Program-made: the position numbers and the translations under genes
Virus record (IMG/VR): IMGVR_UViG_3300036766_002130
Span: 1 to 63,846 of that record
DNA length: 63,846 nt
From: a virus
Direction: 5' to 3' (one strand)
The notes under the pieces: model-generated
Databases searched by the model: none
Told to the model about the DNA's origin: nothing
Seen by the model: only the letters and a program-made list of their open reading frames with translations
Shown: positions 1 to 50,363 of the stretch, in pieces
How the letters are laid out: each line of letters begins with the position of its first letter
Numbering within the stretch: position 1 is the first letter of the stretch

Positions 1-607
1 CCTGGTCAATTAGAAACAAGGTGGTGTTACTCTCAGCAATAGCTTTGATATACTTTCTAAATCCAAGAGATAGCTGCTTAGCACGATATGCTCCAAAACC
101 TTGCTCATCCATCCTCCTCTCATCTTCAATCTTTGCAGGAAGAGCTGTAACACTATCAGTTACATTAATCTTTGGATTAGTATTTAGTTTCTTTTTCTTA
201 TCATCCTTATAAATAATTGAAGTAATCCAGTCGTCAAACAACTCCTCCAGAGTTCCTGGGTATCCTTTTTTAGTCTTGTTCCAGTCAAATCCATACATTA
301 AAGCAAATTCCGGGTCCATAGTATGTTCAACATCATTATAGTAAGTTTCTATCCCCGCCCGTTGGGCATAGCCAAGAATAGTAGCTGCTAACACAGATTT
401 ACACGTACTCATACCTCCATAGGCCTGCACAATTCTTCCAAGTGGGATGCCACCAGGAAATCTGTTAGCAATAGCAAAATCAAGAACAGTGCACCCTGTT
501 TGAATCCACGTACTTACAGGAGGAAGATCAACTATCTCACTCGCCTTTTCAGAGGTTTTTTCAACTTCCGATTTTTCTTCAACTTCTGGTTTTTCTCTTT
601 TGTTCAT
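1..607 (-). CDS. RecA/UvsX-like recombinase, 3' end beyond window
   Basis: This is the N-terminal 202 residues of a RecA-family strand-exchange ATPase; the gene runs off the left edge. It starts at an ATG two bases after the previous stop. An acidic/lysine-rich N-terminus of about 25 residues is followed by the RecA core (IQTGCTVLDFAIANRFPGG, then the P-loop). The Walker A reads GGMSTCKS, with Cys where most RecA proteins have Gly; T4 UvsX (GPSKSFKS) also departs there. The stretch ending LFLIDQ at the window edge is the start of Walker B. It is the last visible gene of the leftward replication block, after an SSB gene, which suits phage recombination-dependent replication. Confidence 0.88.
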   Translation of the reverse strand, partial: MNKREKPEVEEKSEVEKTSEKASEIVDLPPVSTWIQTGCTVLDFAIANRFPGGIPLGRIVQAYGGMSTCKSVLAATILGYAQRAGIETYYNDVEHTMDPEFALMYGFDWNKTKKGYPGTLEELFDDWITSIIYKDDKKKKLNTNPKINVTDSVTALPAKIEDERRMDEQGFGAYRAKQLSLGFRKYIKAIAESNTTLFLIDQ

Positions 608-1657: not shown

Positions 1658-2602
1658 TTATTCCTTCGCACGCCTTCGAGCTTCGATCTCTGCTAACTTT
1701 TGCCTAACCGAAGCAGCTTGTGCAGAATTCTCAGGTGCTCCATCCCTAGATCGAACTCTACTCTTCCTATTCTCAGCTCCGGCCTCTTCTACAACCTCTT
1801 TTGCTTCATTCTTCCCAGGCTCCTCTACCACACTCTTTTCTGGTTCCTTCACGGATTCGTCTCTAGTCCTCTCCCCTCTTGTAGCAGAACCAGTTTCTTT
1901 TTCCTTATTCTCTTCAGAGGGGGTCATACCAGAAACAGCTTGAACCATTTCTTCTTCATCCGGAACAAGAAGGATATCATCAGGAGAAGGGAGATCCTTA
2001 TACCAGCATTCAGGAACTTCCCCAGCCTCTTTCAGTACAAAGTTACCATAGGAAGTTCTCTTCCCATCAATCCGGGTAAACTCAATATCTCTTCCTTCCT
2101 TTGGATCAGTAGGATCAATCTTTTTGCCTGTTCTCTTGTCCACTGATAGTGAACAGATCTGTTGATAAATAGTAGGTGGGCAGTCAAACCACTTAGGCCC
2201 CTCTTCTTCGGTCTGAGAGGAAGTAGTATCGACAACAAAAAGCAAGTACCTTTTAGCAGCAGCAAGTTCCCCAATAACAATGGGATCTGCATTCTCACTC
2301 TTAAGCTTCTTTATGTAATCACAAACAGGGCATCTCTTCTTAAACATTGCTTGTAAACAAAGAAAGGTATTTCCATCTGCCCCAACATTGGAATGCTTCC
2401 AGATTTCCTTAGCAAAAGGTCCCACCTTACTTGGAGTTACGACCCTAATAAAGTTGTTACCTTTAGGCTTTTTTGTATCGTAGCGATCAATCCCTAATCT
2501 TTCTAGTTTAGCTGTGTCAACATAATTAAAGTTGACTCTCCGGCCAGTAGCCTTTGCACCGGCTGAGATTGCTTCCTCTCTACTTGGATCAATTGAACTC
2601 AT
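1658..2602 (-). CDS. gp32-like single-stranded DNA-binding protein
   Basis: A 314-residue protein resembling phage T4 gp32-type SSBs: an N-terminal basic segment, a core with a CPVC pair (RCPVCDYIKK, about residue 95) that may bind zinc, and aromatic-rich strands (GPKWFDCPPTIYQ). The C-terminal third is a highly charged low-complexity tail, as in SSBs that recruit partners. The start is the ATG at 2602, because GGAGG lies about eight bases upstream; the frame is open further to a TTG but that would contain the ribosome site. It would coat ssDNA for the polymerase and recombinase encoded nearby. Confidence 0.75.
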   Translation of the reverse strand: MSSIDPSREEAISAGAKATGRRVNFNYVDTAKLERLGIDRYDTKKPKGNNFIRVVTPSKVGPFAKEIWKHSNVGADGNTFLCLQAMFKKRCPVCDYIKKLKSENADPIVIGELAAAKRYLLFVVDTTSSQTEEEGPKWFDCPPTIYQQICSLSVDKRTGKKIDPTDPKEGRDIEFTRIDGKRTSYGNFVLKEAGEVPECWYKDLPSPDDILLVPDEEEMVQAVSGMTPSEENKEKETGSATRGERTRDESVKEPEKSVVEEPGKNEAKEVVEEAGAENRKSRVRSRDGAPENSAQAASVRQKLAEIEARRRAKE

Positions 2603-2626
2603 CTGATTTACCTCCAAAAATTGTTT

Positions 2627-2773
2627 CTATTCTTTTTTGATATCTTTCTTCCAATTTTTCACTTTGTCTGTCCATAGTTCACAAACTATTCCATCAGTAG
2701 CCCACTCCTTTACAGGAATATCTTCACAGATTGAAGCCCTACAATTTCTACAAGTCTTTTTCTTACTATTCAT
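2627..2773 (-). CDS. 48-residue zinc-ribbon-like protein
   Basis: A small basic protein with CRNC and further cysteines (KTCRNCRASICED) in its N-terminal half. Its ATG overlaps the clamp-loader stop (ATGAATAG), indicating coupled translation. Function unknown. Confidence 0.6.
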   Translation of the reverse strand: MNSKKKTCRNCRASICEDIPVKEWATDGIVCELWTDKVKNWKKDIKKE

Positions 2774-3728
2774 TTTCATCCCCCCAAGTCTCAAAGCAAG
2801 CACGAGCTATCAAAGCTCCTAACTGAGATTTCCCTCCATAGTATACGCTTGTAGCAAATATTCCCAGAAGATGAGTAATATCTTTTGCAGCTTGCATATC
2901 AGTTTGTTTCTTCAATTTATTGAATAGAAAAGTAAGTATAGACCTACGAACTTTCTCTGGCTCTTCATCAATTAAAGAGAACTTTTCAATTATCTGTTTC
3001 CACTTCTTCTCTCTCTGCTCTGGAGCCATTATAAGAAGTTTCAACAAATCCAACATGGTAGCATCTCTTTCTGTACCTTCTACGAGTAACTCAAGAGCTT
3101 CATCCACGTTTGTGATATCAGAAACTTGCTCCAGAGAAACTAAAGCTGCTCTTGGAGATCCCGCACATATTAGAGCTATTGCTTCTATGATATCTTTGTG
3201 AATCTCCAACTTCTTTTCTTTACAAGCTCGCTTCAGTACTTCTACTATCCCTTTTTCAGAAAGTAGGGTAACCTCATACTCAGCACACCTGTTTCGAACG
3301 GTTTCAATAATCCTTGAAGGATCTGTTGTACAAAGGATATAGTAACAATATGAAGGGTTATCCTCTAGAATCTTTAGTAGAGCCTGCTGGGCATCATTGG
3401 TAAGAGCATGGGATTCGTCTATGATATAAGTTTTTGTAGTTCCTCCAAGTCCACGAAAGGATGAGGTTGAACCAATTTCTCGAATAGTATCTATTCCTCT
3501 GGTATTTGCCGCATCTAGTCCAAAAGTGCTATCTCTATTAGAACCAAACGCTGTCGCTAGAATGCGAGCTATTGTGGTCTTTCCACAACCACTAGGACCT
3601 TTCAAAAGAATGGCATGTGGTTGCTCGCTAGCAGGCTTTCTCAGCATCTTTGAAAGAGCACCAATAGTAGATGCGTTTCCTACAATTTCTTCAAGTCTTG
3701 TTGGTCGTACAGCTTGATAAAGGGACAT
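2766..3728 (-). CDS. clamp loader AAA+ ATPase
   Basis: A 320-residue AAA+ protein of the RFC/DnaX/T4 gp44 type that opens and loads the sliding clamp. It shows the N-terminal RPTRLEEIVGN motif, Walker A GPSGCGKTTIAR (about 45-56), Walker B YIIDESHAL, sensor 1 CTTDPSR and the clamp-loader SRC-like arginine finger segment (VRNRCAEYE). A helical collar domain follows. ATG at 3728 is preferred over an upstream TTG because GAGG lies just before it. A beta clamp and polymerase are encoded in the same block. Confidence 0.9.
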   Translation of the reverse strand: MSLYQAVRPTRLEEIVGNASTIGALSKMLRKPASEQPHAILLKGPSGCGKTTIARILATAFGSNRDSTFGLDAANTRGIDTIREIGSTSSFRGLGGTTKTYIIDESHALTNDAQQALLKILEDNPSYCYYILCTTDPSRIIETVRNRCAEYEVTLLSEKGIVEVLKRACKEKKLEIHKDIIEAIALICAGSPRAALVSLEQVSDITNVDEALELLVEGTERDATMLDLLKLLIMAPEQREKKWKQIIEKFSLIDEEPEKVRRSILTFLFNKLKKQTDMQAAKDITHLLGIFATSVYYGGKSQLGALIARACFETWGDENE

Positions 3729-3740
3729 CTTCAATTTACC

Positions 3741-3899: not shown

Positions 3900-3917
3900 A
3901 AATCTTCTCCTTATCTT

Positions 3918-3950
3918 TGCTCATAAAGTTAAACTCTTTTAGATTGACCT
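3918..3950 (-). promoter_or_regulatory. promoter-like repeat, copy 1
   Basis: A block of about 33 bases, read on the minus strand as AGGTCAATCTAAAAGAG followed by TTTAACTTTATGAG, is nearly identical to one at 7184-7216 upstream of the polymerase. Both lie directly upstream of leftward genes. There is no clear sigma-70 -10 box, so this may be a different promoter class or an operator. Confidence 0.45.
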
Positions 3951-3968
3951 GACTTTTTGTCTAATTTG

Positions 3969-4361
3969 TTATTCTGCACCACACAAAGGGCAATCGCCTG
4001 GAATATGTGCTTCTTCACATTCTATTGCAGATAATGTACCTTCCGGCCAACCATAAAGCTTTCTAGCAAGAATTTTCTTTTGAAGGGGTAATCTTTTTTC
4101 TCTTTCAATCACAGAATGATAAAACTTATCCTCCCTCCAACCAAAATAAATTATTTTACCTATATTAAGAAAATAGGCTACAGCACCAGAACAGAAGGCG
4201 ATAAAACAACAAAGTTGACTAAATTTGCTATTAGCTATTAGTAAGCCCAAAACTCCTATTAGCATTAACCCAGCCGTTCCCCAGTACAATCGAAAAGATG
4301 GTTCAGGCCTTTTTTCAAAATAATAGTATAACAACATTTCATCTAAGGACATTATTTTCAT
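3969..4361 (-). CDS. membrane protein with C-terminal CxxC
   Basis: A 130-residue protein with two hydrophobic segments (about 30-48 and 50-70), then a basic stretch and a C-terminal GDCPLCGAE. Probably an inner-membrane protein with a small cytosolic metal-binding end. Family not recognised. Confidence 0.6.
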   Translation of the reverse strand: MKIMSLDEMLLYYYFEKRPEPSFRLYWGTAGLMLIGVLGLLIANSKFSQLCCFIAFCSGAVAYFLNIGKIIYFGWREDKFYHSVIEREKRLPLQKKILARKLYGWPEGTLSAIECEEAHIPGDCPLCGAE

Positions 4362-4441: not shown

Positions 4442-7129
4442 TTAAACCACTTTTAAGGGAAGTTGTTTACTTTCAATCAAACTCCGAAGTAGAACATGAA
4501 ATGCTGTTCCCTGAATAATGTTGTTGCCTAATTGGTTAACACTCAAAGGTCCAACCCTTCGCCAACCAGTAGGAGCTTCTACATAACCATCCTTCAAGTA
4601 ATCATGTATAACTTTATTTTGCCACTCCTTAACATAGTGGTACTCTTCCCAGAATTCTTTTTGTGTTTTAATTATATGCTCAACTGGAACTTCCGGAAAA
4701 GATCGGGCAATACTCTTAGCCGTTGAATTATAAACACTTGGGAATACAAATCCATTCTTACCTCGATATCTTTCATCTTTTGTTACCTCTTCTATCAACT
4801 TTTGAAAAACTTTACCTGCCCACCTTCTATGAGTATCAAAAGGATTCGCTCCACCTTCAGGATGTTCTTTACTCCACTTTTGACCTTCCTTAATCTGTCT
4901 AGTAAGTTCTGGATCTTTGGAAATCATCGCAATAAGCCTTACTTCCATCCCACTATAATCAACTTCGAGAAGAACTCTTGTTCTTCCACTTCCATCATTA
5001 AGAAACTCCTCTAACTTAACTTTCTTGTCTTTTCCAATTCTAACATAAAAACCGGACTCAGTAATCCCAACCGCGTGCATTTCATACCAATTCCATCCTA
5101 CTTCCCATTCAACCTCTAACGGAATATCCCCTTGCCAATCGAACCACTTGGAACACATAATTTCAGTTACTGTGTTAATTGCCTCTTTAACTACATATAT
5201 ATTGGTATCAAATGTAACACTATCATGAACTTCAAAAACTGGAACAATAGGAAACTTTCGTTCTACAGAAGGAATAATACATTTCCGAAACACCTTCAAT
5301 TCTTTATCATGCTTGAACACATTTTGAATGTTAGGGCTATCCGCACTAGATCTATAACTTTCAGCAAAATTCAAATTATATGAAGGATGTACATAACAAT
5401 TAGCATCCATTACATTTCTATAATTAGCTACCCGTTCGGTCAAACTGCAGCACTTCCGAAACCTAAAAAGAGAATTAACTAAAGTTCTTACTTCTTCATT
5501 CCTAGTTTTTTCAAGTATAGTATTTAGAGCTTCTTCATCAGTTGAACCTTTTTTGGTAGCAGTTTCTTTATACTTCTCCTCTCTATAAGTATCATATAAG
5601 ATTTTCTCTAATTGTGCTGGGGAATCTGGGTTAAAAATGCTATTGTGTTCCTCTTCATACTTCTTAACTCCAGGAAGAGAACGCATTTCTAAAACTCGAA
5701 GATCTTTTTCTTCTTGATAATCTTTTTCAAGTTTCTCCAGACAGTTCACATCAAGACGAATCCCATCCTCTCTCATATTCACAAGAGCCTTCGATCCTTC
5801 ATGAAGAAGTTGATAAAACTCTTCTAATCTACCTCTCTCCTCAAGAATTTTCCGTTGCCTATAATATGACATCAAGGTATATTGAACATCCCAACCCGTG
5901 TAATTACAAACATTTTTCAGTGGCTCGGACAGTAATTTTTTCACATCAACTGTTTTCTTGTACTCATGCCCGGTCATTTCATAAGCTTGAAAACCCAAAC
6001 TAGTAGTATAACGAGTATTATTTATAACATGTGCAGCTATCATGGTATCGTGCACATAGTTGTTCATAGGCTGATGTAAAAATACTCTATTCCAAATTTC
6101 CTCCATATTCACATTCTGAACAGCCTTTGGAGTATTACTTGCTAGAAAACTTTGCCATGCTCCAATTATCTTCTTTCGCTCTTCTTCTGTAAAAATTTCT
6201 TTCCCATCATCCCAGTGCAACTTAAGTGGAATAACTACAGCCGATTCAACATCATCCGTTATCGAAATAGACAAAAGATCAGCTCCAGCCTCCCAAGGAG
6301 TTAATGTAGTTGTTTCATAGTCATAAGAAATAACCTGTTTGGAGTCGGAAAAATATTCAAGGAGTTCTGTAATCTCAGAAACATCTGTAACGCATTTATT
6401 TCCATCTTCAGTTAGAGGCTTAGGAAGTGGTGTTCCAAGATATGATATCACATTTGCTAAATCATATCCAAACACAATTTCATCGTCTGGATACTTATCT
6501 GGCTTTCCTTTTCTATGGAGAAAGAATGCAGGATGAAACAAACAGCCAACCCAGCAATTATACTTATGGCAAGGAATAGCTCTTCCATGCATTTGATTTG
6601 CAGTAAAGCTAGATAGGTGCTGAGGTTTGAGAACTGCATTCATAGCAGGAGCACCCAAACATATAATAAAGTCAGGTTTTGTTTCTTCTATATCTTTCTC
6701 AAGTAAAGAATGGCAACACCTAATCTGGTCTTTGGTTGGGTTCTTATCCTTACCCTTCTTATCTTTTCCCGGATAGCACCGAACAACATTTGTTCTCCAA
6801 CAATCTTTATCTACATCAATACCAACGTAGCTAAGATACTTTCTCAACATGCTTCCAGAAGCACCAACAAAGGGAATACCTTGCTTATCTTCATTCCAAC
6901 CAGGGCAAAGTCCAACTATGAGAATCTTTTTCTTTCCATCTCCAAACCTCTCTATCTTTGGACTTCTACAGCTTTCACATAGTTTGCATGTGGAGCAATC
7001 ATAGACTTTTGGGGAAGATTTCCTGCCAGAGGTGCTTCCTCCACTAGATCTTCTCCTTCGAGATTCCTCAGGATGATCTCTCTGATACTCTTCAAAAGTG
7101 CTCATGAAGAAAGCGCGTTGCTTTGACAT
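4442..7129 (-). CDS. UDG-exonuclease-family A DNA polymerase, palm permuted
   Basis: An 895-residue replicative polymerase. Residues 41-230 are a family 4 type uracil-DNA glycosylase domain: cysteines C45/C48/C51/C54, GLCPGWNED (73-81), TNVVRCYP and the HPAFF box (H199). Residues 245-430 are a 3'-5' exonuclease (D270/E272, D361, Y410/D414). A thumb-like helical region follows to about 590. The palm order is unusual: the sequence that normally ends family A enzymes (VHDS, D636, then VGWNWYEMH at 677-685) lies before motif A (DYSGMEVR, D724) and motif B (KNGFVFPSVY, 791-800). The protein ends just after IIQGTAF, where motif C would normally follow. Phage SPO1 polymerase is a known UDG-like fusion. 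The start has GGAAAGGG just upstream. Confidence 0.9.
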   Translation of the reverse strand: MSKQRAFFMSTFEEYQRDHPEESRRRRSSGGSTSGRKSSPKVYDCSTCKLCESCRSPKIERFGDGKKKILIVGLCPGWNEDKQGIPFVGASGSMLRKYLSYVGIDVDKDCWRTNVVRCYPGKDKKGKDKNPTKDQIRCCHSLLEKDIEETKPDFIICLGAPAMNAVLKPQHLSSFTANQMHGRAIPCHKYNCWVGCLFHPAFFLHRKGKPDKYPDDEIVFGYDLANVISYLGTPLPKPLTEDGNKCVTDVSEITELLEYFSDSKQVISYDYETTTLTPWEAGADLLSISITDDVESAVVIPLKLHWDDGKEIFTEEERKKIIGAWQSFLASNTPKAVQNVNMEEIWNRVFLHQPMNNYVHDTMIAAHVINNTRYTTSLGFQAYEMTGHEYKKTVDVKKLLSEPLKNVCNYTGWDVQYTLMSYYRQRKILEERGRLEEFYQLLHEGSKALVNMREDGIRLDVNCLEKLEKDYQEEKDLRVLEMRSLPGVKKYEEEHNSIFNPDSPAQLEKILYDTYREEKYKETATKKGSTDEEALNTILEKTRNEEVRTLVNSLFRFRKCCSLTERVANYRNVMDANCYVHPSYNLNFAESYRSSADSPNIQNVFKHDKELKVFRKCIIPSVERKFPIVPVFEVHDSVTFDTNIYVVKEAINTVTEIMCSKWFDWQGDIPLEVEWEVGWNWYEMHAVGITESGFYVRIGKDKKVKLEEFLNDGSGRTRVLLEVDYSGMEVRLIAMISKDPELTRQIKEGQKWSKEHPEGGANPFDTHRRWAGKVFQKLIEEVTKDERYRGKNGFVFPSVYNSTAKSIARSFPEVPVEHIIKTQKEFWEEYHYVKEWQNKVIHDYLKDGYVEAPTGWRRVGPLSVNQLGNNIIQGTAFHVLLRSLIESKQLPLKVV

Positions 7130-7183
7130 TTACCCTTTCCTTTTGTTTGTAATGAACTGCTCTTCAAAGTAGTTTAATATCCT

Positions 7184-7216
7184 TACTCATAAAATTAAAC
7201 TCTTTTAGATTGACCT
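7184..7216 (-). promoter_or_regulatory. promoter-like repeat, copy 2
   Basis: Second copy of the element at 3918-3950, 55 bases or more upstream of the polymerase start and in the same orientation. The conserved minus-strand core is AGGTCAATCTAAAAGAG. Confidence 0.45.
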
Positions 7217-7258
7217 GTTAGTTTTATGTTTGGTTTTGGGGAGCTTGGTCCTGGCAAG

Positions 7259-7581: not shown

Positions 7582-8640
7582 CTATTCCTCCTCTTCACCT
7601 GATTTTGTTTGTAACAAGTAACGTAAGCTCCCTTTCTCAACTAAAGTTAAGCCTGTATCGGGAAAATACTTGATACTAGAGCACACCCCGGAAACATCTT
7701 TTAGAAAAACAGGGTTAACATTAAATGTAAAATTAGAGTTTAGATTTTCTGTTATCTCAAGTTCTTCTACAAGCTCTCCAAGCTCTGCATTCTTTGAAAT
7801 TACAGTGCATTTATTTTTACAAACTTCCAGAACAATCTCCTTATCAATAGGGTTAACATTAGCAAGAAAGATGGTATGTCGCTCTAACACATCCCCCAAT
7901 CCGCTGATAAATTTAATCTCTACGAAAGGAGAACCAGTAGCAGGAAAATACTGTAGAACATCCCGGTATTCTCCTTCATAAGTACTGGAAGCAATCCGCG
8001 TACCGTCCTCTAGCAAAACTACAAATGAGTTACTCTCTTTATCATAACCTATTGCAGAGATTTCGTGCCTATTTTTGATCATAATGCTGATAAGTTTGAG
8101 GGGCAAAATACATACCAACCCATCAAAACTACTTCCTAGGGACCAGCAAGCTATCCGATACCTATCCGTACTTAGCAAAGTATCCTTATTAATCATAACA
8201 CCACAAATTGGCCCAGCGGTTTCATCTTTAGAAACTGCAAGTCTACAAAAATTGAGACCTTCAACTATGTCTTCTATCTTAGATTTATCATCATAAACAA
8301 GTTGAGGAATTTCTATATCTCTAACATCAATGCTCTTTTGAATAGTAAAAGAGCCTTTCAAACCCCCTGCTTTTACAAGAATACTGCTTTCACTTTGTAC
8401 TAATTCCACTTCCTCTTCAGCCAAACTCCTTAGTAGAGAAAGTATGGGTGCTCCGGGGACTCCACATTCAAATTCTGTATCTTCAGGAAGCTCAGTATGA
8501 ATTCTCATGATTCCATCATAAGCTTGGACAATCTTCCCCTTAAACTGGAAGCACTGGAACTCGGGAACAAGTACATTTACACCCACTACGGGATAGACTT
8601 TTTCCAGACTGTTAACCAAATTTTTTCTGTTCATCTTCAT
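7582..8640 (-). CDS. DNA polymerase sliding clamp (beta-like)
   Basis: A 352-residue protein with the three-domain pattern of bacterial DnaN: repeated alpha/beta units, INKDTLLSTDRYRIA in the middle domain (compare the DnaN ATDGHRLA region) and FTFNVNPVFLKDV in the third domain (compare DnaN FNxxYLxDV). The C-terminus ends in an acidic tail instead of the usual MPMRL. It would hold the polymerase on DNA and be loaded by the AAA+ protein at 2766-3728. GGAG lies eight bases before the ATG. Confidence 0.85.
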   Translation of the reverse strand: MKMNRKNLVNSLEKVYPVVGVNVLVPEFQCFQFKGKIVQAYDGIMRIHTELPEDTEFECGVPGAPILSLLRSLAEEEVELVQSESSILVKAGGLKGSFTIQKSIDVRDIEIPQLVYDDKSKIEDIVEGLNFCRLAVSKDETAGPICGVMINKDTLLSTDRYRIACWSLGSSFDGLVCILPLKLISIMIKNRHEISAIGYDKESNSFVVLLEDGTRIASSTYEGEYRDVLQYFPATGSPFVEIKFISGLGDVLERHTIFLANVNPIDKEIVLEVCKNKCTVISKNAELGELVEELEITENLNSNFTFNVNPVFLKDVSGVCSSIKYFPDTGLTLVEKGSLRYLLQTKSGEEEE

Positions 8641-8688: not shown

Positions 8689-9798
8689 TTAGAAGAAAGA
8701 CTTACCACTTTTATATTTAGAAGGCTGGTGAATACTTTCACACCCCAGGAGCTGTTCATAGTAATAGATATTAGTTTTCATTCTTTCCAATGCATCGGTT
8801 TTTAGCTTTTCTGGATCAACACCAGCTTCAACAAAGTACTGTTCTATCCTTTCAACTACTTCCTTAGGAAATGCAAGTGTATAGTGGGGTTTTTTCGAAG
8901 ATTTAACCATCGAAATAATAGACACTGGAACTACAAGAGGGGAGTGGGCGTAGTCAAACTTCTCTTTTGCAGGATCGTAGTTAGGGACCATTACTTCCCC
9001 GTATACAGCGTGTTTTAACCAGGTGGTTGAATCCGTAGAATACCACGGGAAGTGCTGCATTAAACTGATTGATGTTACAGCAAAACCATGAACTTTTATT
9101 CCAGGGTTGGTATGAGAAATATATTCAAACGCTCTATTCCCTAATGACTGAACAAACTGCTGAAGAGTAATTCCTCCAGCAACTCCCCCAATTCCTATAT
9201 AGTCATAGTTGTTAACGTAGTGTTCTAACCATTTAAAATCTTCCCCATAATGAAAAACTGGTATTGGTCTAAGTCCATTACTCTCCATGTACTGCTGATT
9301 TTCAAAGGACTCCTCAGCATTGTATATAATATCTAGATTCACATACCCTAACAATTGATTTTTATACTTATGAATGAACTCAATATACTCATCCAAGTAC
9401 TTTCGAACATCTGGCTTCTTATTAAAAGACCAATCTGCAAAGAACTGAACTGCTCCACCCTTTTTAGCAGCATAAGAAATCCTTTGATTTATTGTAAGCC
9501 GATCTTCAAACTCTTCAGATGTAAATGTAATTTTGTCATTCTCAACTTTTTTCTCAGTTTCAACAGTATTTCCTTTGTTGATAAGGCCTACCTGAGCATT
9601 CAGCAAAGAATGAGCACCTGAATCTAGAAAAATCTTTATGTCAGGGTTTGCATCAAGAATTTTTGTTAGTTCTTGTCTTTTCCAAAAAGTTTCCAGTGCG
9701 GTGATCTTGCCCTCTTTAAGCTTCCCCATAACAAACTCATCCCTTGAAGTATAACCATTGCTAAAAAGGCCAGCAAGATGGATAAACTGTACAGACAT
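8689..9798 (-). CDS. dpdA: DpdA-like DNA-guanine transglycosylase
   Basis: A 369-residue TGT-superfamily enzyme of the phage DpdA type, which swaps guanine in DNA for a 7-deazaguanine base. Visible signatures are IFLDSGAHS with D59, GYVNLDIIYN with D156, PVFHYGEDFKWLEHY (181-194) and YIGIGGVAGG (200-209), in the order seen in TIM-barrel TGT/DpdA proteins. The tRNA-TGT zinc-site cysteines are not obvious. The lysine-rich C-terminus may contact DNA. It lies beside queC, with queF and queE a few kb upstream, as in phages that make preQ0 or preQ1 and insert it in their DNA. Confidence 0.85.
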   Translation of the reverse strand: MSVQFIHLAGLFSNGYTSRDEFVMGKLKEGKITALETFWKRQELTKILDANPDIKIFLDSGAHSLLNAQVGLINKGNTVETEKKVENDKITFTSEEFEDRLTINQRISYAAKKGGAVQFFADWSFNKKPDVRKYLDEYIEFIHKYKNQLLGYVNLDIIYNAEESFENQQYMESNGLRPIPVFHYGEDFKWLEHYVNNYDYIGIGGVAGGITLQQFVQSLGNRAFEYISHTNPGIKVHGFAVTSISLMQHFPWYSTDSTTWLKHAVYGEVMVPNYDPAKEKFDYAHSPLVVPVSIISMVKSSKKPHYTLAFPKEVVERIEQYFVEAGVDPEKLKTDALERMKTNIYYYEQLLGCESIHQPSKYKSGKSFF

Positions 9799-9889
9799 TC
9801 ATTTCTCCTTGTTGAAGGTATCGAGAACCTATTGAGCTGCTTGCAGAACTAACAACACAATGGATTCCCTACCTCTTTTCCCGGGAGTA

Positions 9890-10020
9890 TTAGAATATTG
9901 CATTTCCTGGCTTTCCCAACTCCAACCACCAACATCTTACTTGTGTGCCTCTATTCACTTTAAGTGCTTCAGCCCACTCTTCATCAGATCAAATTTTACT
10001 GGATCTTTAGGACTTGGCAT
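9890..10020 (-). pseudogene. frameshifted small gene after queC
   Basis: A short reading frame starts at an ATG overlapping the queC stop (MPSPKDPVKFDL...) and is interrupted. A one-base shift restores a coherent sequence (DEEWAEALKVNRGTQV, then CWWLELGKPGNAIF) to a TAA. The two parts look like one protein of about 43 residues with a single-base deletion. It is either a real mutation or a sequencing error. Confidence 0.45.
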
Positions 10021-10711
10021 TATTATATTTTTTACATCCTGCCCAATCAACCTCAATTTCGTACTCAACTGGATCAATTATCTTATTCAGCTTGAAAGCC
10101 TCTATCCTCTCTACATCTGTGCCACACAAACCGCAGTGCTTCTCCCCTCCTTTATAACAACTCCAGGAGAGCTCCAAAGGCGCACCGATTTCCACCCCAT
10201 ACCTAACAATATCGTTCTTACCCCAATCAACGAAAGGTGAATGAATAATAATCTCTCCATACCCTCCTAATCTAATTCCTGCCGCAAAGGCCTTGATATA
10301 CTCCTTTTGACAATCTGGGTAGATTTCATGATCCCCAGCATGGTTAGCAATAGCAACATACTTTGCTCCAATACTCTCCGCGAATCCAGCAGCAATAGAA
10401 AGCATAATACTATTCCTATAAGGAACAACGGTTCTCCTCATAATTGGGTCTTCGTAATGTCCCTCCGGAATTGTACCACCAGATTGAAGAAGATTGGACT
10501 TGAATAACTCATTTATGAAAGGAAGATTCACTTCAACAAGTTTCACATCTAGTATCTTGCAAACTTTCCTTGCAGCTCCTCTTTCTTTGTCATTGTGTTT
10601 TGAGCCATAATTGAAGTTCAAGGCAACGATCTCATCAAACTCCTTCTTACATTTTGTTAGGAGGACTGTGGAGTCGAGCCCGCCACTGTAGATGATTACT
10701 GCTTTATTCAT
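10007..10711 (-). CDS. queC: QueC, 7-cyano-7-deazaguanine (preQ0) synthase
   Basis: A 234-residue ATP-dependent enzyme that turns 7-carboxy-7-deazaguanine into preQ0. The PP-loop is SGGLDS (9-14), RRTVVPYRN (92-100) is the conserved substrate segment, and the C-terminal metal site lies in SCYKGGEKHCGLCGTD. The family normally has four cysteines; here C185, C193 and C196 are present and the fourth position is Asp199. It is next to dpdA and probably supplies a DNA-modification pathway, though preQ0 could also enter tRNA queuosine. Confidence 0.92.
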   Translation of the reverse strand: MNKAVIIYSGGLDSTVLLTKCKKEFDEIVALNFNYGSKHNDKERGAARKVCKILDVKLVEVNLPFINELFKSNLLQSGGTIPEGHYEDPIMRRTVVPYRNSIMLSIAAGFAESIGAKYVAIANHAGDHEIYPDCQKEYIKAFAAGIRLGGYGEIIIHSPFVDWGKNDIVRYGVEIGAPLELSWSCYKGGEKHCGLCGTDVERIEAFKLNKIIDPVEYEIEVDWAGCKKYNNAKS

Positions 10712-14143: not shown

Positions 14144-14263
14144 TTACTCCTCCTCCTCCGAGCAGAAAATTTCACCACATTCCTCACAAATGTGAGAATC
14201 GTTGTCAACTTCATCCTCTTGAACATTTCCACAATATGGATATTCAACTTCTTTCAGTTCCAT
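14144..14263 (-). CDS. 39-residue zinc-knuckle protein
   Basis: A short acidic protein with YPYCG and CEECG, a minimal zinc ribbon. Its ATG overlaps the QueE stop (TAATG), so it is probably co-translated with queE. Confidence 0.6.
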   Translation of the reverse strand: MELKEVEYPYCGNVQEDEVDNDSHICEECGEIFCSEEEE

Positions 14264-15042
14264 TATCTTTCCTCCTTTGCACCTGGCCACAAGAGTTTGT
14301 GCAACTGGAGCGAAAACTGAGCAGGAATCTTATCTCTAATCATCATCTCAACGAGCTGACGTGGCCAAGACATATTTAATTCTGGAGTCAAATTTAACTT
14401 TGTTCCGGTAGCCCCCCAATAGTTACGTTCAACAAGTTCCATCATTGGGCTAAAGACCATCTTTGCTATCCAATTTGGGTTTTTCTCTATCAATTCACAA
14501 GCTCTCTTGTAATCCTTCTCATCTGAAATAACAAATTTGATTACATCAATATCTCGAAGCTTTTCAAAAAGATTCAAATTCATACAATGTTCAACCCCCG
14601 AACTTGGAAGCTTATAATCAACCACAAAACGAAACATGAAATGGTCTAGTCTGGTATGAGCAGGGAGTTTCACCCCTAAGAATTTTTCTTCTTCATAGAA
14701 CATATCTGATATATCTATTGAACCATTCGTTTCGATTGTAACAAGATATCTTTTTTCTATTAGTTTATATACAAGTTTTTTTAGACCAATTCTCTGGAAA
14801 GCAGGTTCACCCCCGGTGACTGTAACCTTTGGAAAGTGAACTTGCTTCATAATTTCATCTATAGTCATCAAGTTAGCAGGTTCAGATTCTTGGGCATACC
14901 TAGTATCGCAATAGGAACACCCGGGATGAAAGTTACATCCTTTCAAACGGATGAAAGTGCAAAGTTGACCTGCTCCATCAAAGCCGTTGGCTTCCCCGTC
15001 GATGGAGTCGAAAACGGATTGGATGTTAAGTTTGTTATTCAT
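14263..15042 (-). CDS. queE: QueE, 7-carboxy-7-deazaguanine synthase
   Basis: A 259-residue radical SAM enzyme that rearranges 6-carboxytetrahydropterin to 7-carboxy-7-deazaguanine. Near the N-terminus it has SIDGEANGFDGAGQLCTFIR, and the cluster cysteines are C36, C42 and C45 in GCNFHPGCSYCDT. TVTGGEPAFQ (about 73-82) binds SAM, and VTIETNGS follows. It supplies QueC. No QueD homologue was recognised in the window. Confidence 0.92.
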   Translation of the reverse strand: MNNKLNIQSVFDSIDGEANGFDGAGQLCTFIRLKGCNFHPGCSYCDTRYAQESEPANLMTIDEIMKQVHFPKVTVTGGEPAFQRIGLKKLVYKLIEKRYLVTIETNGSIDISDMFYEEEKFLGVKLPAHTRLDHFMFRFVVDYKLPSSGVEHCMNLNLFEKLRDIDVIKFVISDEKDYKRACELIEKNPNWIAKMVFSPMMELVERNYWGATGTKLNLTPELNMSWPRQLVEMMIRDKIPAQFSLQLHKLLWPGAKEER

Positions 15043-22242: not shown

Positions 22243-23286
22243 TTATTGTTTGATTAAGGATAAAAACTCAGATCGCACCTCATCCTCTGAAAAACTCCCT
22301 TCTATCGCACTCGTAACAAGCTCCGAGGAGTTTGTCTTCACTCCTCGAATCTTCATACACATATGCTCCCCTTTCAACAAAACAAACACCCCTCGGGGTT
22401 TCAACATACTGGAAAGTGAATCCTTTACTTTACTGGTAATATTTTCTTGCAAGTCTGGGACAGAACAAAATAGCTCTACCAATCTCTGAGGTTTGGATGC
22501 TCCAAGAACAAATCCATTAGGAATAATCCCAATATAATACTTGTATAGCACAGGCAACAAATGATGTGGACACATCCCTATAGTCTCTCCTTTATAAATA
22601 ATCATCTCATCATTTTGGGAAGGAAAAACTGTAGATAGGATGTCCTTTACTTCTGCTCCAAAGTTTAGAAACAAACCTGAGCAGAGCTCCATATACATTC
22701 TAGATACTCTTTGGGGGGTTTCCTTGAAATTAGGATCATCTAAAGGAATCTTCATTGAATGCAGGAGGGCATGAATTGCTCGCTTAATCATGTTCATACC
22801 TGCAAATTTTTGTTCTTCTCTTCTAATCCTGTTATGAAGCTTTCCATGGCAACTTTTACATAACAAAATATAGTTGGATAAGTCAGAAGAGTAGTAGTCA
22901 TAGGATAAGTGATGGGAACACAACTGACCAGCACAATCACACTTCTTCCCACACCTCTCACAAACCAACCCCCTCTCATCTACCAACTTCTTTTTGATAG
23001 TTCTATCATTTTTTTGGTAAGTTATTACAAGAGTTTTGCTCCCCCTTCTTTTTATTTGCTTTGCCCTCTTCTTTCCATAAATCTTTTCATATGTTTTACC
23101 TCTAGTATTTTGATTCTTCAACTTCTTGGTTTGCTCTGTCTCAATAGGAGCGTCTGGAAACTTCCCCATATACTCTTTCACGGTTATTCCATGAAACTTT
23201 CCTAGATGAGTATTAGTAATCTCTTTAAAACGTTTTTGACACAATCTACAAACCACAAAATCAACTTCTTCTTTACCTTCCATCAT
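22243..23286 (-). CDS. folE: HNH nuclease-GTP cyclohydrolase I (FolE) fusion
   Basis: A 347-residue two-part protein. Residues 10-50 are a zinc finger (CRLCQKRF...HLGKFHGIT) typical of phage HNH proteins, and 108-152 are an HNH domain (CERCGKK, CSHHLSYDYY, CKSCHGKLHN). Residues 164-347 are GTP cyclohydrolase I, with zinc/active-site motifs MCPHHLLPV (C239, H242) and GEHMCMKIRGV (H308, C310). FolE makes dihydroneopterin triphosphate, the first step to preQ0. The frame is unbroken; internal Met164/166 could restart the FolE part but lack a spaced ribosome site. Confidence 0.85.
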   Translation of the reverse strand: MMEGKEEVDFVVCRLCQKRFKEITNTHLGKFHGITVKEYMGKFPDAPIETEQTKKLKNQNTRGKTYEKIYGKKRAKQIKRRGSKTLVITYQKNDRTIKKKLVDERGLVCERCGKKCDCAGQLCSHHLSYDYYSSDLSNYILLCKSCHGKLHNRIRREEQKFAGMNMIKRAIHALLHSMKIPLDDPNFKETPQRVSRMYMELCSGLFLNFGAEVKDILSTVFPSQNDEMIIYKGETIGMCPHHLLPVLYKYYIGIIPNGFVLGASKPQRLVELFCSVPDLQENITSKVKDSLSSMLKPRGVFVLLKGEHMCMKIRGVKTNSSELVTSAIEGSFSEDEVRSEFLSLIKQ

Positions 23287-31813: not shown

Positions 31814-33030
31814 AGCCTCCTATGGCTAAAGCTCATAGGCTTCCAACAGGTTATCCTGTTCTTCTTTTTCCTGCTTCAGCGAGGACCACTGCTCCAAAGG
31901 AGCTGTAACCTTATCCTCTCCACAGGCGTTGATTTGGCTGGCCCCCAGCCTATGTATGTTTATAGCTGCGTTAAGATCTCTATCTAAGCTAAATCCACAA
32001 ACCTTACAATTAAATACTCTATCACTTAAAGTTAGCTCCTCGTTCTTCCAACCACATCTACTGCAAGTCTTACTACTTGGATAGAATTTATCTATCTTCA
32101 AGAAGTACTTGCTGTTCCAAAGCGCTTTATACTCTAACTGTCTTACAAATTCGGACCAAGCTACATCAGCAACAGATTTTGCAAGGTGATGATTCCTCAT
32201 CATTCCAGATATATTTAGATCTTCAACCACAACACCATCATACTTGGCTATCATATGAGATGTTAGTTTGTGAAGAAAATCTAATCTTACATCCTTTATC
32301 TTCTGATGTATCCTATGGACCTTCTTTCTTTGCTTATTCCTGTTAACACTTCCTTTCTGTTTTCTACTCAATCTTCTTTGTTCTCTAACCAACTTTTCCT
32401 CATACCTCTTCATGTGTTTTGGATTAATAATTATGGTCCCGTCTGATAAAGTAGCAAACGCATTTAACCCTAAATCTACTCCAACAAGATTATTTGCCTT
32501 TTTCTCTTTCTCCCGAATCTCAAATTCACAAGTTACTGAACAATACCATCTATTTCCATCTTGTAAAACCGTAATATGTTTTGGTTTACCTTGAAGAGAT
32601 CGATGTTTTATCCATCTTACTTCTCCTATTTTTGGAATATGAACAAAGCTTTTCTTCAACTTCCATCCTTGAGGACAAGTAAAGGAATCATTGTCTTTCT
32701 TCTTCTTAAACTTTGGAAAACCTCTGTTACTCCTAAAGCTATCTCTTAATGCTCTATCCAATTGTCTTGCTACAGTTTGTAAAGATTGAGAAAAAGATAG
32801 ATTTAGAAAATCAAATTCTTTCTTCAACTTAGGTATGGACATTGACATTTCGTAGAAAAATTTGAATTTCTTTGTTTCCTTATAATAGTCAGTATTGTTC
32901 TTGAGCAAGTAATTCCAGAGAAAACGAGCATTACCTCCCTGCTGAAGCAGCATAACTCTCTGCTCCTCTGTTGGATATATTCTAAATTTAAACCCTTTTT
33001 GAATCTTCATCTTACCTCAACTTCTGTATC
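31814..33030 (-). mobile_element. IS605-type element carrying tnpB, no tnpA
   Basis: The right end has a hairpin at 31819-31839 (CCTATG...CATAGG), overlapping the tnpB stop as in IS200/IS605 elements where the omega RNA arises. The left end lies just upstream of tnpB around 33020-33060. There is no tnpA (Y1 transposase), so it cannot move alone. Confidence 0.75.
31826..33010 (-). CDS. tnpB: TnpB, IS605 OrfB-type RNA-guided nuclease
   Basis: A 394-residue OrfB protein. The RuvC catalytic acids are in VGVDLGLNAFA (about 187-197), VVEDLNISGM and DRDLNAAINIH. The zinc ribbon is CSRCGWKN ... CKVCGFSL. The N-terminal wedge-like region starts with FKFRIYPTEEQ. All three acids are present, so it may be active; its guide would come from the sequence beyond the right end. 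The last codons lie in the terminal hairpin. Confidence 0.9.
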   Translation of the reverse strand: MKIQKGFKFRIYPTEEQRVMLLQQGGNARFLWNYLLKNNTDYYKETKKFKFFYEMSMSIPKLKKEFDFLNLSFSQSLQTVARQLDRALRDSFRSNRGFPKFKKKKDNDSFTCPQGWKLKKSFVHIPKIGEVRWIKHRSLQGKPKHITVLQDGNRWYCSVTCEFEIREKEKKANNLVGVDLGLNAFATLSDGTIIINPKHMKRYEEKLVREQRRLSRKQKGSVNRNKQRKKVHRIHQKIKDVRLDFLHKLTSHMIAKYDGVVVEDLNISGMMRNHHLAKSVADVAWSEFVRQLEYKALWNSKYFLKIDKFYPSSKTCSRCGWKNEELTLSDRVFNCKVCGFSLDRDLNAAINIHRLGASQINACGEDKVTAPLEQWSSLKQEKEEQDNLLEAYEL

Positions 33031-46645: not shown

Positions 46646-46753
46646 TCATCTCCTTCTTCTGCCAAAAATGAAAGCTACACAACACAATAAGACCAATATA
46701 AAAATTGTAGACCATTCCGGAGTATACCAAGAAACTAAATCAAAGCTATACAT
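46646..46753 (-). CDS. small membrane peptide, 35 aa
   Basis: One hydrophobic helix (STIFILVLLCCVAFIFG) with a basic C-terminus. Its ATG overlaps the upstream stop (ATGTATAG). It could anchor a neighbour; function unknown. Confidence 0.5.
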   Translation of the reverse strand: MYSFDLVSWYTPEWSTIFILVLLCCVAFIFGRRRR

Positions 46754-47633
46754 TTGGTGTAATCCTTTCAAAGAAATTAACATAGTTTTGAGCCACTAAT
46801 CGAATGTCATGATTATCAACAGCAAATTTTCTTGCTTCTTCTCGCATACTTCTGTATAGGCTTGGGTTCTCAACCATTTGCAAAATAGCTTTCTTGATTG
46901 ATTCTCCTGCTCTTTCTACAAAAATACACTGTTTGTAATTCTCAAGGGCGTGTCCGTGGTATCCTATTTTGGTGCAAATTGCAGGAACTCCACAAGATAG
47001 TGCTTCAGCAATAACATTTGAACATCCTTCATTCTTGCTTGGAAGCACCAAACAGTCTATTTTATGATAGAAATCAGGAACCATTCGATTGGCAGCGATT
47101 TGATGTTTACCACGAATAGCATTTCTCTGCTCTATCCTGTCTCCCAAAGAATTTACTGCTTCTTGATATGGTGGCCACCCCTTGTAATCGGCATTAGCGC
47201 CCTCGATATTTGCTGCAAATCCAACAGTAAACTTCTCAGTATTTCTCCATGGTAGAGGATAATACGAATCTAAGTTTACACCATTGGGTTGCAAAATTAC
47301 ATTACTGTTCTTAGTGCAGGCGACATCAAACAAAACTTTGTTGGTGCAAATTACACCAGCTACTTTGGAAAGTATCTCTAGTCTTGAAGGAGTTAGCGCA
47401 CGAACACTATCAAGAATAGAAACCAAGTTGTCAAATCTTTTGTATAAATGTAAACACGTTGGATTCATAGCCACCACAATATCAACCCGCCGGCCCAAGT
47501 TCTCCAAAACTTCTTGGAATTTCTTCTTGTATCCGTGATAATGTTTGCACTGAGGCATATTTGCAGCCAGCATTTTGGCATTGATATCATAAGCCCAATC
47601 AGGAACGTCACAAATCCATAGTATACTTTTCAT
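46746..47633 (-). CDS. glycosyltransferase, GT4-like
   Basis: A 295-residue GT-B fold enzyme: SKVAGVICTNKVLF, QPNGVNLDSYYP and the C-terminal PSKNEGCSNVIAEALSCGVP with the donor-binding EGCxNVIxE. Typical of retaining family 4 enzymes that add hexoses. Confidence 0.8.
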   Translation of the reverse strand: MKSILWICDVPDWAYDINAKMLAANMPQCKHYHGYKKKFQEVLENLGRRVDIVVAMNPTCLHLYKRFDNLVSILDSVRALTPSRLEILSKVAGVICTNKVLFDVACTKNSNVILQPNGVNLDSYYPLPWRNTEKFTVGFAANIEGANADYKGWPPYQEAVNSLGDRIEQRNAIRGKHQIAANRMVPDFYHKIDCLVLPSKNEGCSNVIAEALSCGVPAICTKIGYHGHALENYKQCIFVERAGESIKKAILQMVENPSLYRSMREEARKFAVDNHDIRLVAQNYVNFFERITPNV

Positions 47634-48340
47634 GGTATTTCCTTAATAATTGGACTGTTTACAGCACGTTGATTTGCCAACGCTATGATGTCAATTGGAG
47701 TTCTTAGTAACCGCATTACAGAATCTTTTCTATACGTACGGTAATAGAGAATTTCCTGAACGACTCTTCCTTCAAAAAATTGTTGTACTCTTCTGGTATA
47801 GTTGTATGTTTCACCAGTGAGCGCTAGAGGATCAAAGTAACCGACCTTCTCCACAGCAGCCCTAGAGTAAATCATTGAAGGATCAATCATACATAATTTC
47901 TTTGGGTAGATATTTTTTAAATCATCATCTGTACACCGGCAATGAATATCTACATATTTTCTTATTGCTATCCCGTGTTCATCAAATGATTGGCCCCAAC
48001 AACCAACAAACCCGATATTTTGTTCAAACTTTAACAGCTGCTTACTAATTCTCTCTGGATGACTTTCATCATCAGCGTCCATTCTTGCTATAAACTCACC
48101 TTTGGCCAAATCCAAACATTGATTCAACCGAATGGTAAGCCCTTTATTCTCATCTTCTCTAAAAGCTCTTATCCTTGGATCATTGTATGTTTTGATTCTA
48201 TCAAACACAGCCTCTGTAGAACCATCATCAATAATAATAAATTCTAAATCCTTTTCTGTTTGATTAAGAATACTCTGGATAGCTCTGTCCAAAAACCGGA
48301 TTCCGTTGAAAACCGGCATTATAACTGATACTTTAGGCAT
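47630..48340 (-). CDS. glycosyltransferase, GT2
   Basis: A 236-residue inverting GT-A enzyme: VSVIMPVFNG, QTEKDLEFIIIDDGS and the DxD-like FIARMDADDESHPER. It lacks membrane helices. It overlaps both neighbours, so the sugar genes are transcribed together. AGGAAG precedes the ATG. Confidence 0.85.
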   Translation of the reverse strand: MPKVSVIMPVFNGIRFLDRAIQSILNQTEKDLEFIIIDDGSTEAVFDRIKTYNDPRIRAFREDENKGLTIRLNQCLDLAKGEFIARMDADDESHPERISKQLLKFEQNIGFVGCWGQSFDEHGIAIRKYVDIHCRCTDDDLKNIYPKKLCMIDPSMIYSRAAVEKVGYFDPLALTGETYNYTRRVQQFFEGRVVQEILYYRTYRKDSVMRLLRTPIDIIALANQRAVNSPIIKEIP

Positions 48341-48342
48341 AA

Positions 48343-48954
48343 TTACTTCCTCGCCCAAAACTCCCAAAGCCAATCAAAGCAAAAAACGGAAGTATGCGTC
48401 TTAGATAACCCATCTTGAATTGCTTGTCTTCGAGAGACACTTTCTTCGCCGTATTGATGAAATTGAATAGCTATATGTTCGAATTTATTTACCAATCCAC
48501 TTTCTATCATAGCTGGGAGTATTTCATACTCGCCACCCTCACAATTACACTGCAGCAAATCAATACCTTCTATATGATTCTCAGTTATAAAATCTACAAC
48601 GGATTTTATCTGGATGTTCCTATGTTTTCCTGGACAGAATATTCCGGTGGCATCCTCCTTAACACCCACTTTCTGAAGTCTAGTACTGCTACCTAAACCA
48701 AAAGGAAACATTGTAACCTTAGAATTATTGACAAATTCCTTCTTGCCATCCAAGTACCATTCCTCTATCGGTTCGAACGCAAAGATAAATGGGTTATATC
48801 TTTGCACTATTTCCCTCACCCAGCGGCCGTGCCAGTAACCAACTTCCCAGACTTTGCTTTTTTCATTCAAAAAGGGAAAAATCTCAATCTGGTGATCCCC
48901 ACCGGCTGCAAGCCACCTTTTGTATTCATCTGATTTTTTTACCTTTGCACTCAC
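48343..48954 (-). CDS. FkbM-type methyltransferase
   Basis: A 203-residue SAM-dependent enzyme: VWEVGYWHGRWVREIVQ, IFAFEPIEEW and IDLLQCNCEGGEYEILPAM, the FkbM signature order. GTG start with GGAAG upstream; an ATG at 48984 lies inside the neighbour. It probably methylates a sugar. Confidence 0.7.
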   Translation of the reverse strand: MSAKVKKSDEYKRWLAAGGDHQIEIFPFLNEKSKVWEVGYWHGRWVREIVQRYNPFIFAFEPIEEWYLDGKKEFVNNSKVTMFPFGLGSSTRLQKVGVKEDATGIFCPGKHRNIQIKSVVDFITENHIEGIDLLQCNCEGGEYEILPAMIESGLVNKFEHIAIQFHQYGEESVSRRQAIQDGLSKTHTSVFCFDWLWEFWARK

Positions 48955-48958
48955 GTTA

Positions 48959-49711
48959 CTACTTCCTAAAACAAAAATCTGCATTCGTATCTACAGTTGA
49001 AGCATGATTACCCTCAACAAATTCAACTATATTAAAACCTGTTTTTCCTCGTACAACTGGACTATACACCCTGTTTTTATTGAAAAAACCTGCCCAAAAA
49101 CTGAATGTAGAATTAGCCCTCAAGAGAACATCCGCGTTCACCATTAAGAAGAAATCAGGCAAAAATTGCAAATCTCTCTCCAATCTGGGGTCCTCAGTTT
49201 GTGTCTCTTCTGCTACCCATCTAATATTCCCTTTTGGTATATTAAATTTGTCACACGCCCGTAGGTAGGACTCTTTAGATATCTCGCAGTATTCATTTGA
49301 AAACTTACTAACGTAATCACCCTTGCGAAGATGAGCTACCACAGAAAAAGTGGCTTCTTTCGGAAAAAGGCTTACCCATTTATCTTGAAATTGAAGCCAA
49401 CTTCTTATTTTTGCTTCAGACAAAATGTCTATAAATTCTTTCCTTTGAAAGTATCCACACAAATCTATATTTATTGTCCCCCACTTTACACAATCCGTTT
49501 TTGTTGGTGGTAATTTTACAGATGGTTTTGGATGTTCTACATTCTTAAATATCTTCTGACCCACCCAGTTAGGTATTTCAAGAGTAGCACCATACTTTTC
49601 AGCGTAGGTTCTGGCAAATAAATATTGAAATATTTGATTGCCAAAACGTCCCATCTTACCAAGCCGGGCAACTTGTACTATCCCTTTAGGCACCTGGCTG
49701 GCCCCTAGCAT
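48959..49711 (-). CDS. GT11-type fucosyltransferase
   Basis: A 250-residue enzyme matching family 11: GRFGNQIFQYLFARTYAEKY near the N-terminus and VVAHLRKGDYVS (HxRRxDY-like). Likely an alpha-1,2-fucosyltransferase acting on a surface sugar, although the acceptor is unknown. Confidence 0.75.
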   Translation of the reverse strand: MLGASQVPKGIVQVARLGKMGRFGNQIFQYLFARTYAEKYGATLEIPNWVGQKIFKNVEHPKPSVKLPPTKTDCVKWGTINIDLCGYFQRKEFIDILSEAKIRSWLQFQDKWVSLFPKEATFSVVAHLRKGDYVSKFSNEYCEISKESYLRACDKFNIPKGNIRWVAEETQTEDPRLERDLQFLPDFFLMVNADVLLRANSTFSFWAGFFNKNRVYSPVVRGKTGFNIVEFVEGNHASTVDTNADFCFRK

Positions 49712-50363
49712 CTAAAGCCCAAATCTTGTAATTAGAAACATCATTATCTTTTATCTCAAAAAGTGGAAACAACTGCTTGGTCACAAAGAAAGCGTTAATT
49801 GCACAAACAGATATCAATTCGTAGCCTTTTCTCTTCGCCAATTTCGTTAAGGAAGCTAATGATGTTCCCACATACTTCTTACGTGGGAATGGGATGTGTT
49901 GAATAAACTCCTCACCATTTCTAAGTGTTGGGCTACACTCAACACAGACAATACTGGGGGTATACTCTACAAAAGCTTCCCAAATATAATAATCGGGGCC
50001 GTCAACATCAATCGAAAGAAAGTCAAAATCTTTTGGGCAAGGAGTATTTTTAAGAAGACTATCTAAGCTGTTAATTCCGTCTATCTCTACTTTAGAATTT
50101 AAACACATCACTGGAAAACCTTTATAGGTCGTCTTCAGTTCAGCAAACTTTCCAGCATCTGATTCAATCTCAACCCCATTCCAACCTCTGTTTACAATCA
50201 AATTAAAGGTGTTACTGTAGAGTTTGCCATCCCAAGCTCCAAATTCAACACACCATTTATTTTTAGAACCAATAATCTCAAAAATCTTCTCTATAACACC
50301 ATCCTCTCCGTGCTGGGAAGTAACGACTTTACGATATTCTGCTAGCCAATTCGGTAGATTCAT
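49686..50363 (-). CDS. methyltransferase-like protein
   Basis: A 225-residue protein with SQHGEDGVIEKIFE, WCVEFGAWDGKLYSNT and DFLSIDVDGPDYYIWEA, a Rossmann-type SAM methyltransferase pattern seen beside glycosyltransferases. The start is uncertain (ATG 50363 preferred over TTG 50384). Confidence 0.65.
   Translation of the reverse strand: MNLPNWLAEYRKVVTSQHGEDGVIEKIFEIIGSKNKWCVEFGAWDGKLYSNTFNLIVNRGWNGVEIESDAGKFAELKTTYKGFPVMCLNSKVEIDGINSLDSLLKNTPCPKDFDFLSIDVDGPDYYIWEAFVEYTPSIVCVECSPTLRNGEEFIQHIPFPRKKYVGTSLASLTKLAKRKGYELISVCAINAFFVTKQLFPLFEIKDNDVSNYKIWALDARGQPGA

What the first reader, a model, noticed from the sequence alone, without database searches (positions are those of the whole stretch)
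4442..7129. Circularly permuted DNA polymerase palm in a UDG-exo-PolA fusion
In family A polymerases the order is motif A, B, then C at the C-terminus. Here the C-terminal block (VHDS D636 to WNWYEMH 685) is inserted between the FRKCIIPS segment (about 614-621) and motif A (D724), and the protein ends right after IIQGTAF where motif C would start. The frame is intact and every catalytic residue is kept, including the exonuclease set. I know of no described example of a permuted family A palm, though palm permutation exists in some viral RNA polymerases.
Basis: partly seen in the sequence, partly recalled or inferred. Interest (0 to 1): 0.9.

Follow-up and report, generated by a model that had tools for sequence, protein, structure and literature searches.

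The report
Natural rewiring of phage DNA polymerase
A virus of microbes makes its DNA-copying enzyme with one piece of the catalytic core moved to a different place in the protein chain, a rearrangement known from some RNA-virus enzymes but, as far as I could find, not from this class of DNA polymerase.

Summary
The 895-aa UDG-exonuclease-PolA protein (4442-7129, minus strand) has its family A polymerase segments in the order thumb/N-palm, motif C block, motif A, motif B, end (C-A-B instead of A-B-C). It is not an assembly error: a 69%-identical gene on a contig from another metagenome (L007) and two near-identical contigs (L001, L002) share both junctions. All other relatives inspected, including the syntenic sisters at 56-63% identity (L003-L006, L109), are canonical. 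The permuted genes form one clade (100/100) nested among canonical ones, so this was one derived event. Every segment is under purifying selection (dN/dS 0.16-0.21), the polymerase catalytic residues are kept, and the gene sits in the usual slot between sliding clamp and clamp loader. AlphaFold2 folds the permuted chain confidently (pLDDT 92.8, pTM 0.88), including the motif C hairpin and both new linkers. Most likely it is a working replicase whose palm was rewired, as in birnavirus and permutotetravirus RNA polymerases. No earlier report of a permuted family A palm was found in the open-access library.

The parts
4442..7129 (-). UDG-3'-5' exonuclease-family A polymerase gene with C-A-B palm (895 aa)
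6503..6946 (-). Uracil-DNA glycosylase superfamily domain (residues 62-209)
   Evidence: Pfam UDG 4.9e-23
5870..6391 (-). 3'-5' exonuclease domain (residues 247-420); D270, E272, E343 (in place of Asp), Y410, D414
   Evidence: positions and Klenow alignment
5267..5659 (-). Thumb and N-terminal palm of polymerase (residues 491-621), ending FRKCIIPS
   Evidence: Pfam DNA_pol_A profile 22-147
5000..5266 (-). Relocated C block (residues 622-710): motif C hairpin, helix, last palm strand and the former C-terminal tail (KLEEF)
   Evidence: Pfam DNA_pol_A profile 330-381; 40-50% identical to the C-termini of the canonical relatives
5219..5230 (-). Motif C VHDS (634-637), H635 and D636
4979..4999 (-). 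Linker NDGSGRT (711-717) joining the former C-terminus to the motif A strand; DGSGRT identical in L007
4475..4978 (-). A-B block (718-885): motif A D724/E729, O-helix R787 K791 F796 Y800, Q873
4445..4474 (-). New C-terminal tail (886-895), variable (differs between window and L002)
7582..8640 (-). Sliding clamp (upstream neighbour)
   Evidence: PHROG 947, 2.3e-31; synteny
2766..3734 (-). Clamp loader (downstream neighbour)
   Evidence: PHROG 5846, 1.1e-57; synteny
1658..2617 (-). gp32-like single-stranded DNA binding protein
   Evidence: PHROG 1192 / Pfam gp32
2..607 (-). UvsX/RecA-like recombinase (cut by window end)
   Evidence: PHROG 97

Best explanation
A family A replicative DNA polymerase of a tailed virus in which one rearrangement moved the C-terminal palm block (motif C hairpin, helix, last strand and C-terminal tail) to just before the motif A strand, giving motif order C-A-B. 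Shown: the order, its conservation in a 69%-identical relative, its derived and single origin, purifying selection on every segment, and a confident structure prediction with both linkers resolved. Inferred: the chain folds into the ordinary right hand, with the former C-terminus reaching the start of the motif A strand through the NDGSGRT linker and the thumb-side strand reaching motif C through PSVERKFP, so that D636 again faces D724 and the enzyme copies DNA with the usual two-metal chemistry in the phage replisome. Also inferred: the likely route is duplication of the 3' part of the gene followed by loss of the first A-B copy and the last C copy.
For: Split Pfam order 22-147, 330-381, 153-279 against one run in L003. 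Same order in L001, L002 and the 69%-identical L007; all other relatives inspected are canonical. Junction scan finds only these three contigs in permuted order. Tree: permuted rows one clade 100/100, sister to canonical L003/L005/L006/L109, nested among canonical. dN/dS window vs L007 0.175 (N part), 0.158 (C block), 0.21 (A-B) with dS 0.9-1.5. Catalytic residues present. Clamp / polA / clamp loader / SSB / RecA synteny shared with canonical relatives. AlphaFold2 pLDDT 92.8, pTM 0.88, with C block 86-95 and hairpin strands at residues 628-634 and 637-643. Foldseek best PDB hit Klenow, E 2e-21. Origin: in L002/L007 the new C-terminal tail (LIELDKVLPTKF) and the start of the C block (VERKFP) both resemble the one canonical linker (LIRIEKEFARRKF), as duplication-deletion predicts. 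The canonical sisters already carry the ~30-aa C-terminal extension that now serves as linker.
Against: No biochemistry. No coordinates of the model were available, so the D636-D724 distance and PAE were not inspected. Without relatives' C-block rows the motif C strand was poorly modelled (pLDDT below 50), so confidence depends on the alignment and AlphaFold2 may be recalling the canonical fold. Only two divergent lineages are known. The window is a genome fragment, so a second polymerase elsewhere is possible. The linker resemblances behind the duplication model are short.
Confidence: 0.85

Rival explanations
1. The order is an artefact of assembly or a rare rearranged molecule.
For: Raw reads could not be examined.
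Against: Three further contigs with different IMG metagenome numbers share both junctions, one at 69% protein and 74% DNA identity with dS near 1. The frame is intact throughout.
Confidence: 0.02
2. The protein is no longer a polymerase: the permuted palm is degenerate, and UDG or exonuclease is the kept function, with another polymerase replicating the genome.
For: No activity data; window incomplete; the conserved Gly after the O-helix Tyr is Asn801 in the window and its near-copies; the C-terminal tail drifts.
Against: Polymerase blocks are as constrained as the rest (dN/dS 0.16-0.21). D724, E729, R787, K791, F796, Y800, Q873, H635, D636 are all kept. It occupies the replisome slot and no second polymerase turned up among the roughly 40 larger ORFs scanned.
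Confidence: 0.1
3. The C block does not return to its own palm but completes the active site of a neighbouring molecule (domain-swapped dimer).
For: Not excluded by a monomer prediction. A permuted RdRP has been seen as a dimer (PMC4666646).
Against: Both linkers (8 and 7 residues) are modelled with high confidence in the monomer. No exchange between molecules is needed.
Confidence: 0.08
4. The gene is scrambled and canonical order is restored at DNA, RNA or protein level (inversion, trans-splicing, intein).
For: None direct. A 40-nt direct repeat flanks polA plus ORF130 but lies outside the coding region.
Against: Continuous ORF, conserved junction sequences DGSGRT and FRKCIIPSVERK in both lineages, no Rfam intron, no Pfam intein or recombinase hit within the protein.
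Confidence: 0.02

Closest known systems
UDG-exo-PolA fusions of the same phage group (L003, L004, L005, L006; L109 in a Borrarchaeum MAG)
   Same: Domain set, 56-63% identity, synteny with clamp, clamp loader, SSB, RecA, ~30-aa C-terminal extension
   Different: Canonical A-B-C order, ending with the C block
SPO1-like and Vibrio phage family A polymerases; E. coli Pol I Klenow fragment
   Same: Fold (Foldseek E 2e-21 to Klenow), catalytic residues, exonuclease plus polymerase; the phage enzymes align over the UDG part too
   Different: Canonical order; about 25% identity
Birnavirus and permutotetravirus RNA-dependent RNA polymerases with C-A-B palm (PMC4666646, PMC3121795)
   Same: Motif C placed upstream of motif A in an otherwise normal right hand
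   Different: Unrelated RNA polymerases with GDD/ADN-type motifs; independent event in a different enzyme family

Membership tests
DNA polymerase family A | Match to the family profile (Pfam PF00476) | tested here: met
   E 1.1e-40 in three stretches; pieces E 4.5e-14, 2.8e-20 and 4.2e-5 (the C block alone is below the curated cut-off, as is that of L003)
DNA polymerase family A | Motif A Asp and Glu, O-helix R/K/F/Y, motif C His-Asp | tested here: met
   D724, E729, R787, K791, F796, Y800, H635, D636; O-helix has one extra residue between K and F, as in the relatives
DNA polymerase family A | Descent from family A polymerases | tested here: met
   Nested within a clade of canonical phage PolA at 100/99
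DNA polymerase family A | Collinear motif order A, B, C with motif C near the C-terminus (property of all described members; not part of the profile or descent definition) | tested here: not met
   Order C, A, B
DNA polymerase family A | Template-directed DNA synthesis | not testable with these tools
   needs purified protein
Permuted-palm RNA-dependent RNA polymerases (birna-, permutotetraviruses) | C-A-B order of palm motifs | tested here: met
   order in RdRPs from PMC4666646
Permuted-palm RNA-dependent RNA polymerases (birna-, permutotetraviruses) | RdRP sequence homology | tested here: not met
   Pfam and PDB matches are only to family A DNA polymerases for the polymerase part
UDG superfamily domain fused to phage PolA | UDG domain at N-terminus | tested here: met
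   Pfam UDG 4.9e-23 at 62-209; thermophile UDG and UdgX-type structures best in PDB
Proofreading DnaQ-like exonuclease of Pol I | Klenow D355, E357, D424, Y497, D501 equivalents | tested here: inconclusive
   D270, E272, Y410, D414 present; ExoII Asp is Glu343, conserved across the clade

The most novel reading that the evidence does not exclude
The first natural DNA polymerase with a permuted (C-A-B) palm: an active phage replicase showing that family A palm connectivity can be rewired by one rearrangement, in parallel with the birnavirus and permutotetravirus RNA polymerases.
Probability: 0.78. Interest if true: 0.85.

Novelty: new variant of a known kind. Interest (0 to 1): 0.82.

Why it matters
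Palm-domain polymerases copy most genomes, and the A-B-C connectivity of family A has looked invariant. A naturally permuted, selectively maintained case with close canonical sisters in the same genomic slot shows that connectivity is not essential to the active site. It makes the evolution of palm permutation testable on a fairly recent event, rather than the ancient one in birnaviruses. It also warns that motif-order-based profiles and structure searches can mis-score or miss such enzymes, and offers a natural template for polymerase engineering.

Tried and rejected
A first mixed alignment (A3) misplaced the canonical C-block fragments and was discarded. A first AlphaFold2 run with only three C-block rows left the motif C strand unresolved; truncated fragments placed correctly fixed it. 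Remnants of the C block or A-B block around the gene or elsewhere in the window: none beyond chance. Homing endonuclease or intron next to polA as agent of the rearrangement: small ORFs only downstream in L007, no Rfam hit. Two-piece hits in SPO1-like phages over the junction query span about 840 bp, the canonical spacing (inferred from the span, not read). PMC7824862 and PMC10853773 mention circular permutation only for methylases; PMC11528492 for a 5S rRNA; PMC11348598 (6560 phage PolA surveyed) uses 'permuted' only for a genome map.

Full report
Observation. The ORF at 4442-7129 (minus) encodes 895 aa with UDG, 3'-5' exonuclease and family A polymerase matches. Motif positions are FRKCIIPS 614-621, VHDS 634-637, EVDYSGMEVR 722-731, RYRGKNGFVFPSVYNS 787-802, NNIIQGTAF 869-877. 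Cut into three pieces, the protein matches the Pfam DNA_pol_A profile (381 positions) at 22-147, then 330-381, then 153-279; canonical L003 matches 20-380 in one run. A profile of the C block from 29 relatives aligns with the very C-termini of Bst, Taq and Klenow polymerases, including VHD-to-VHD and the terminal W. The order C-A-B is therefore a fact of the sequence.

Not an artefact. IMG/VR holds a near-copy (L001, 99.7%), a second close contig (L002, 99%), and a 69%-identical gene on a third contig from another metagenome (L007), all with the same two junctions. The nearest others, L003/L004 (63%), L005 (58%), L006 (57%) and L109 (56%, on a 179-kb contig of a Borrarchaeum MAG), have canonical order. 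Among all loci fetched by the A-B block, the C block lies before motif A only in these three contigs and the window. In every other relative the ORF continues 70-123 residues past the A-B block, with the C block there wherever the profile detects it. Only the best 80 of 442 viral matches could be inspected, so more distant permuted cases are not excluded. A scan with the junction region finds no permuted contig beyond the same three.

History. A tree of the shared parts puts the permuted rows in one clade (100/100), sister to L003/L005/L006/L109 (100/99) and nested among canonical polymerases, so the canonical order is ancestral. The C-block tree also unites them (99/95), though its deeper forks are weak. 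At the protein level the former C-terminal tail (...KKVKLEEF) runs on through NDGSGRT into the motif A strand, and the canonical sisters already possess that tail. The canonical linker between the A-B and C blocks (LIRIEKEFARRKFK in L003) is echoed at both new ends: the C block starts VERKFP and the L002/L007 proteins end LIELDKVLPTKFLL / LIELDKVLPVSFPS. That is what a partial duplication followed by complementary deletions would leave; it is suggestive, not proven. The final ten residues differ between the window and L002 and appear dispensable.

Function. Window against L007 gives dN/dS 0.175, 0.158 and 0.21 for N part, C block and A-B part, with dS 0.9-1.5, so all segments have been constrained for a long time in permuted form. 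The polymerase residues corresponding to Klenow R668, D705, E710, R754, K758, F762, Y766, Q849, H881 and D882 are R593, D724, E729, R787, K791, F796, Y800, Q873, H635 and D636 (positions; Klenow numbering from general knowledge). Gene order sliding clamp, polA, clamp loader, gp32-like SSB, 609-1142, UvsX-like recombinase is shared with the canonical relatives. The window also encodes DnaG-type primase and DnaB-type helicase. The polymerase thus sits where the canonical replicase sits, and no other polymerase was seen among the ORFs scanned.

Structure. AlphaFold2 on residues 236-895 with 46 rows, C-block fragments placed correctly, gives pLDDT 92.8 and pTM 0.88. The motif C hairpin (residues 628-634 and 637-643) and both new linkers have high confidence. 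With only three C-block rows the motif C strand was unresolved, so the result depends on evolutionary information. Foldseek's best PDB match is Klenow (E 2.2e-21, TM 0.72 on the target); Foldseek aligns in chain order, so this cannot itself test the position of the C block.

Comparison. Palm permutation to C-A-B is established in birnavirus and permutotetravirus RdRPs, where structures keep a normal active site (PMC4666646; PMC3121795). Eight literature searches on permutation and one on the UDG fusion found no permuted family A or other DNA polymerase palm. A survey of 6560 phage PolA proteins (PMC11348598) reports two divergent PolA types and does not mention a permuted palm. The library lacks most subscription papers.

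Verdict. A genuine, derived, selectively maintained C-A-B family A DNA polymerase; a new variant of a known kind and highly interesting, awaiting biochemistry and a structure.

Noticed in passing
window 3912-3951 and 7178-7217: A 40-nt direct repeat (93%; inner 23 nt identical, none expected by chance) flanks polA plus ORF130 in the same orientation. Also in L001 (two copies) and L002 (one copy, contig starts inside polA); exact core absent from the other loci. Possible 5' leader/promoter copy or trace of cassette exchange.
   Followed up: partly
window 3969-4361: Small ORF (130 aa, membrane-like with a C-terminal CPLCG) between polA and the clamp loader; L002 lacks about 380 nt here. L007 has about 1.4 kb of other small ORFs, while L003-L006 have shorter gaps.
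   Followed up: partly
window 22243-23286: GTP cyclohydrolase I (FolE) fused behind an N-terminal HNH-endonuclease-like part.
   Followed up: no
window 8689-10711, 14263-15042, 22243-23286: DpdA-like transglycosylase, QueC, QueE and FolE: likely 7-deazaguanine modification of the virus DNA.
   Followed up: no
window 46746-55828: Run of glycosyltransferase-like genes, including a sialyltransferase-like match, next to tail/Ig-domain genes.
   Followed up: no
L109 (JAHQJS010000001.1, 127088-137591): Syntenic canonical relative on a 179-kb contig binned with Candidatus Borrarchaeum weybense: this virus group may infect Asgard archaea, or the contig may be mis-binned.
   Followed up: no
window 31826-33010: IS605-type TnpB/OrfB gene inside the virus genome.
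   Followed up: no
window 4442-7129, polA residue 801: The conserved Gly after the O-helix Tyr is Asn in the window, L001 and L002 but Gly in L007 and the canonical relatives shown.
   Followed up: no
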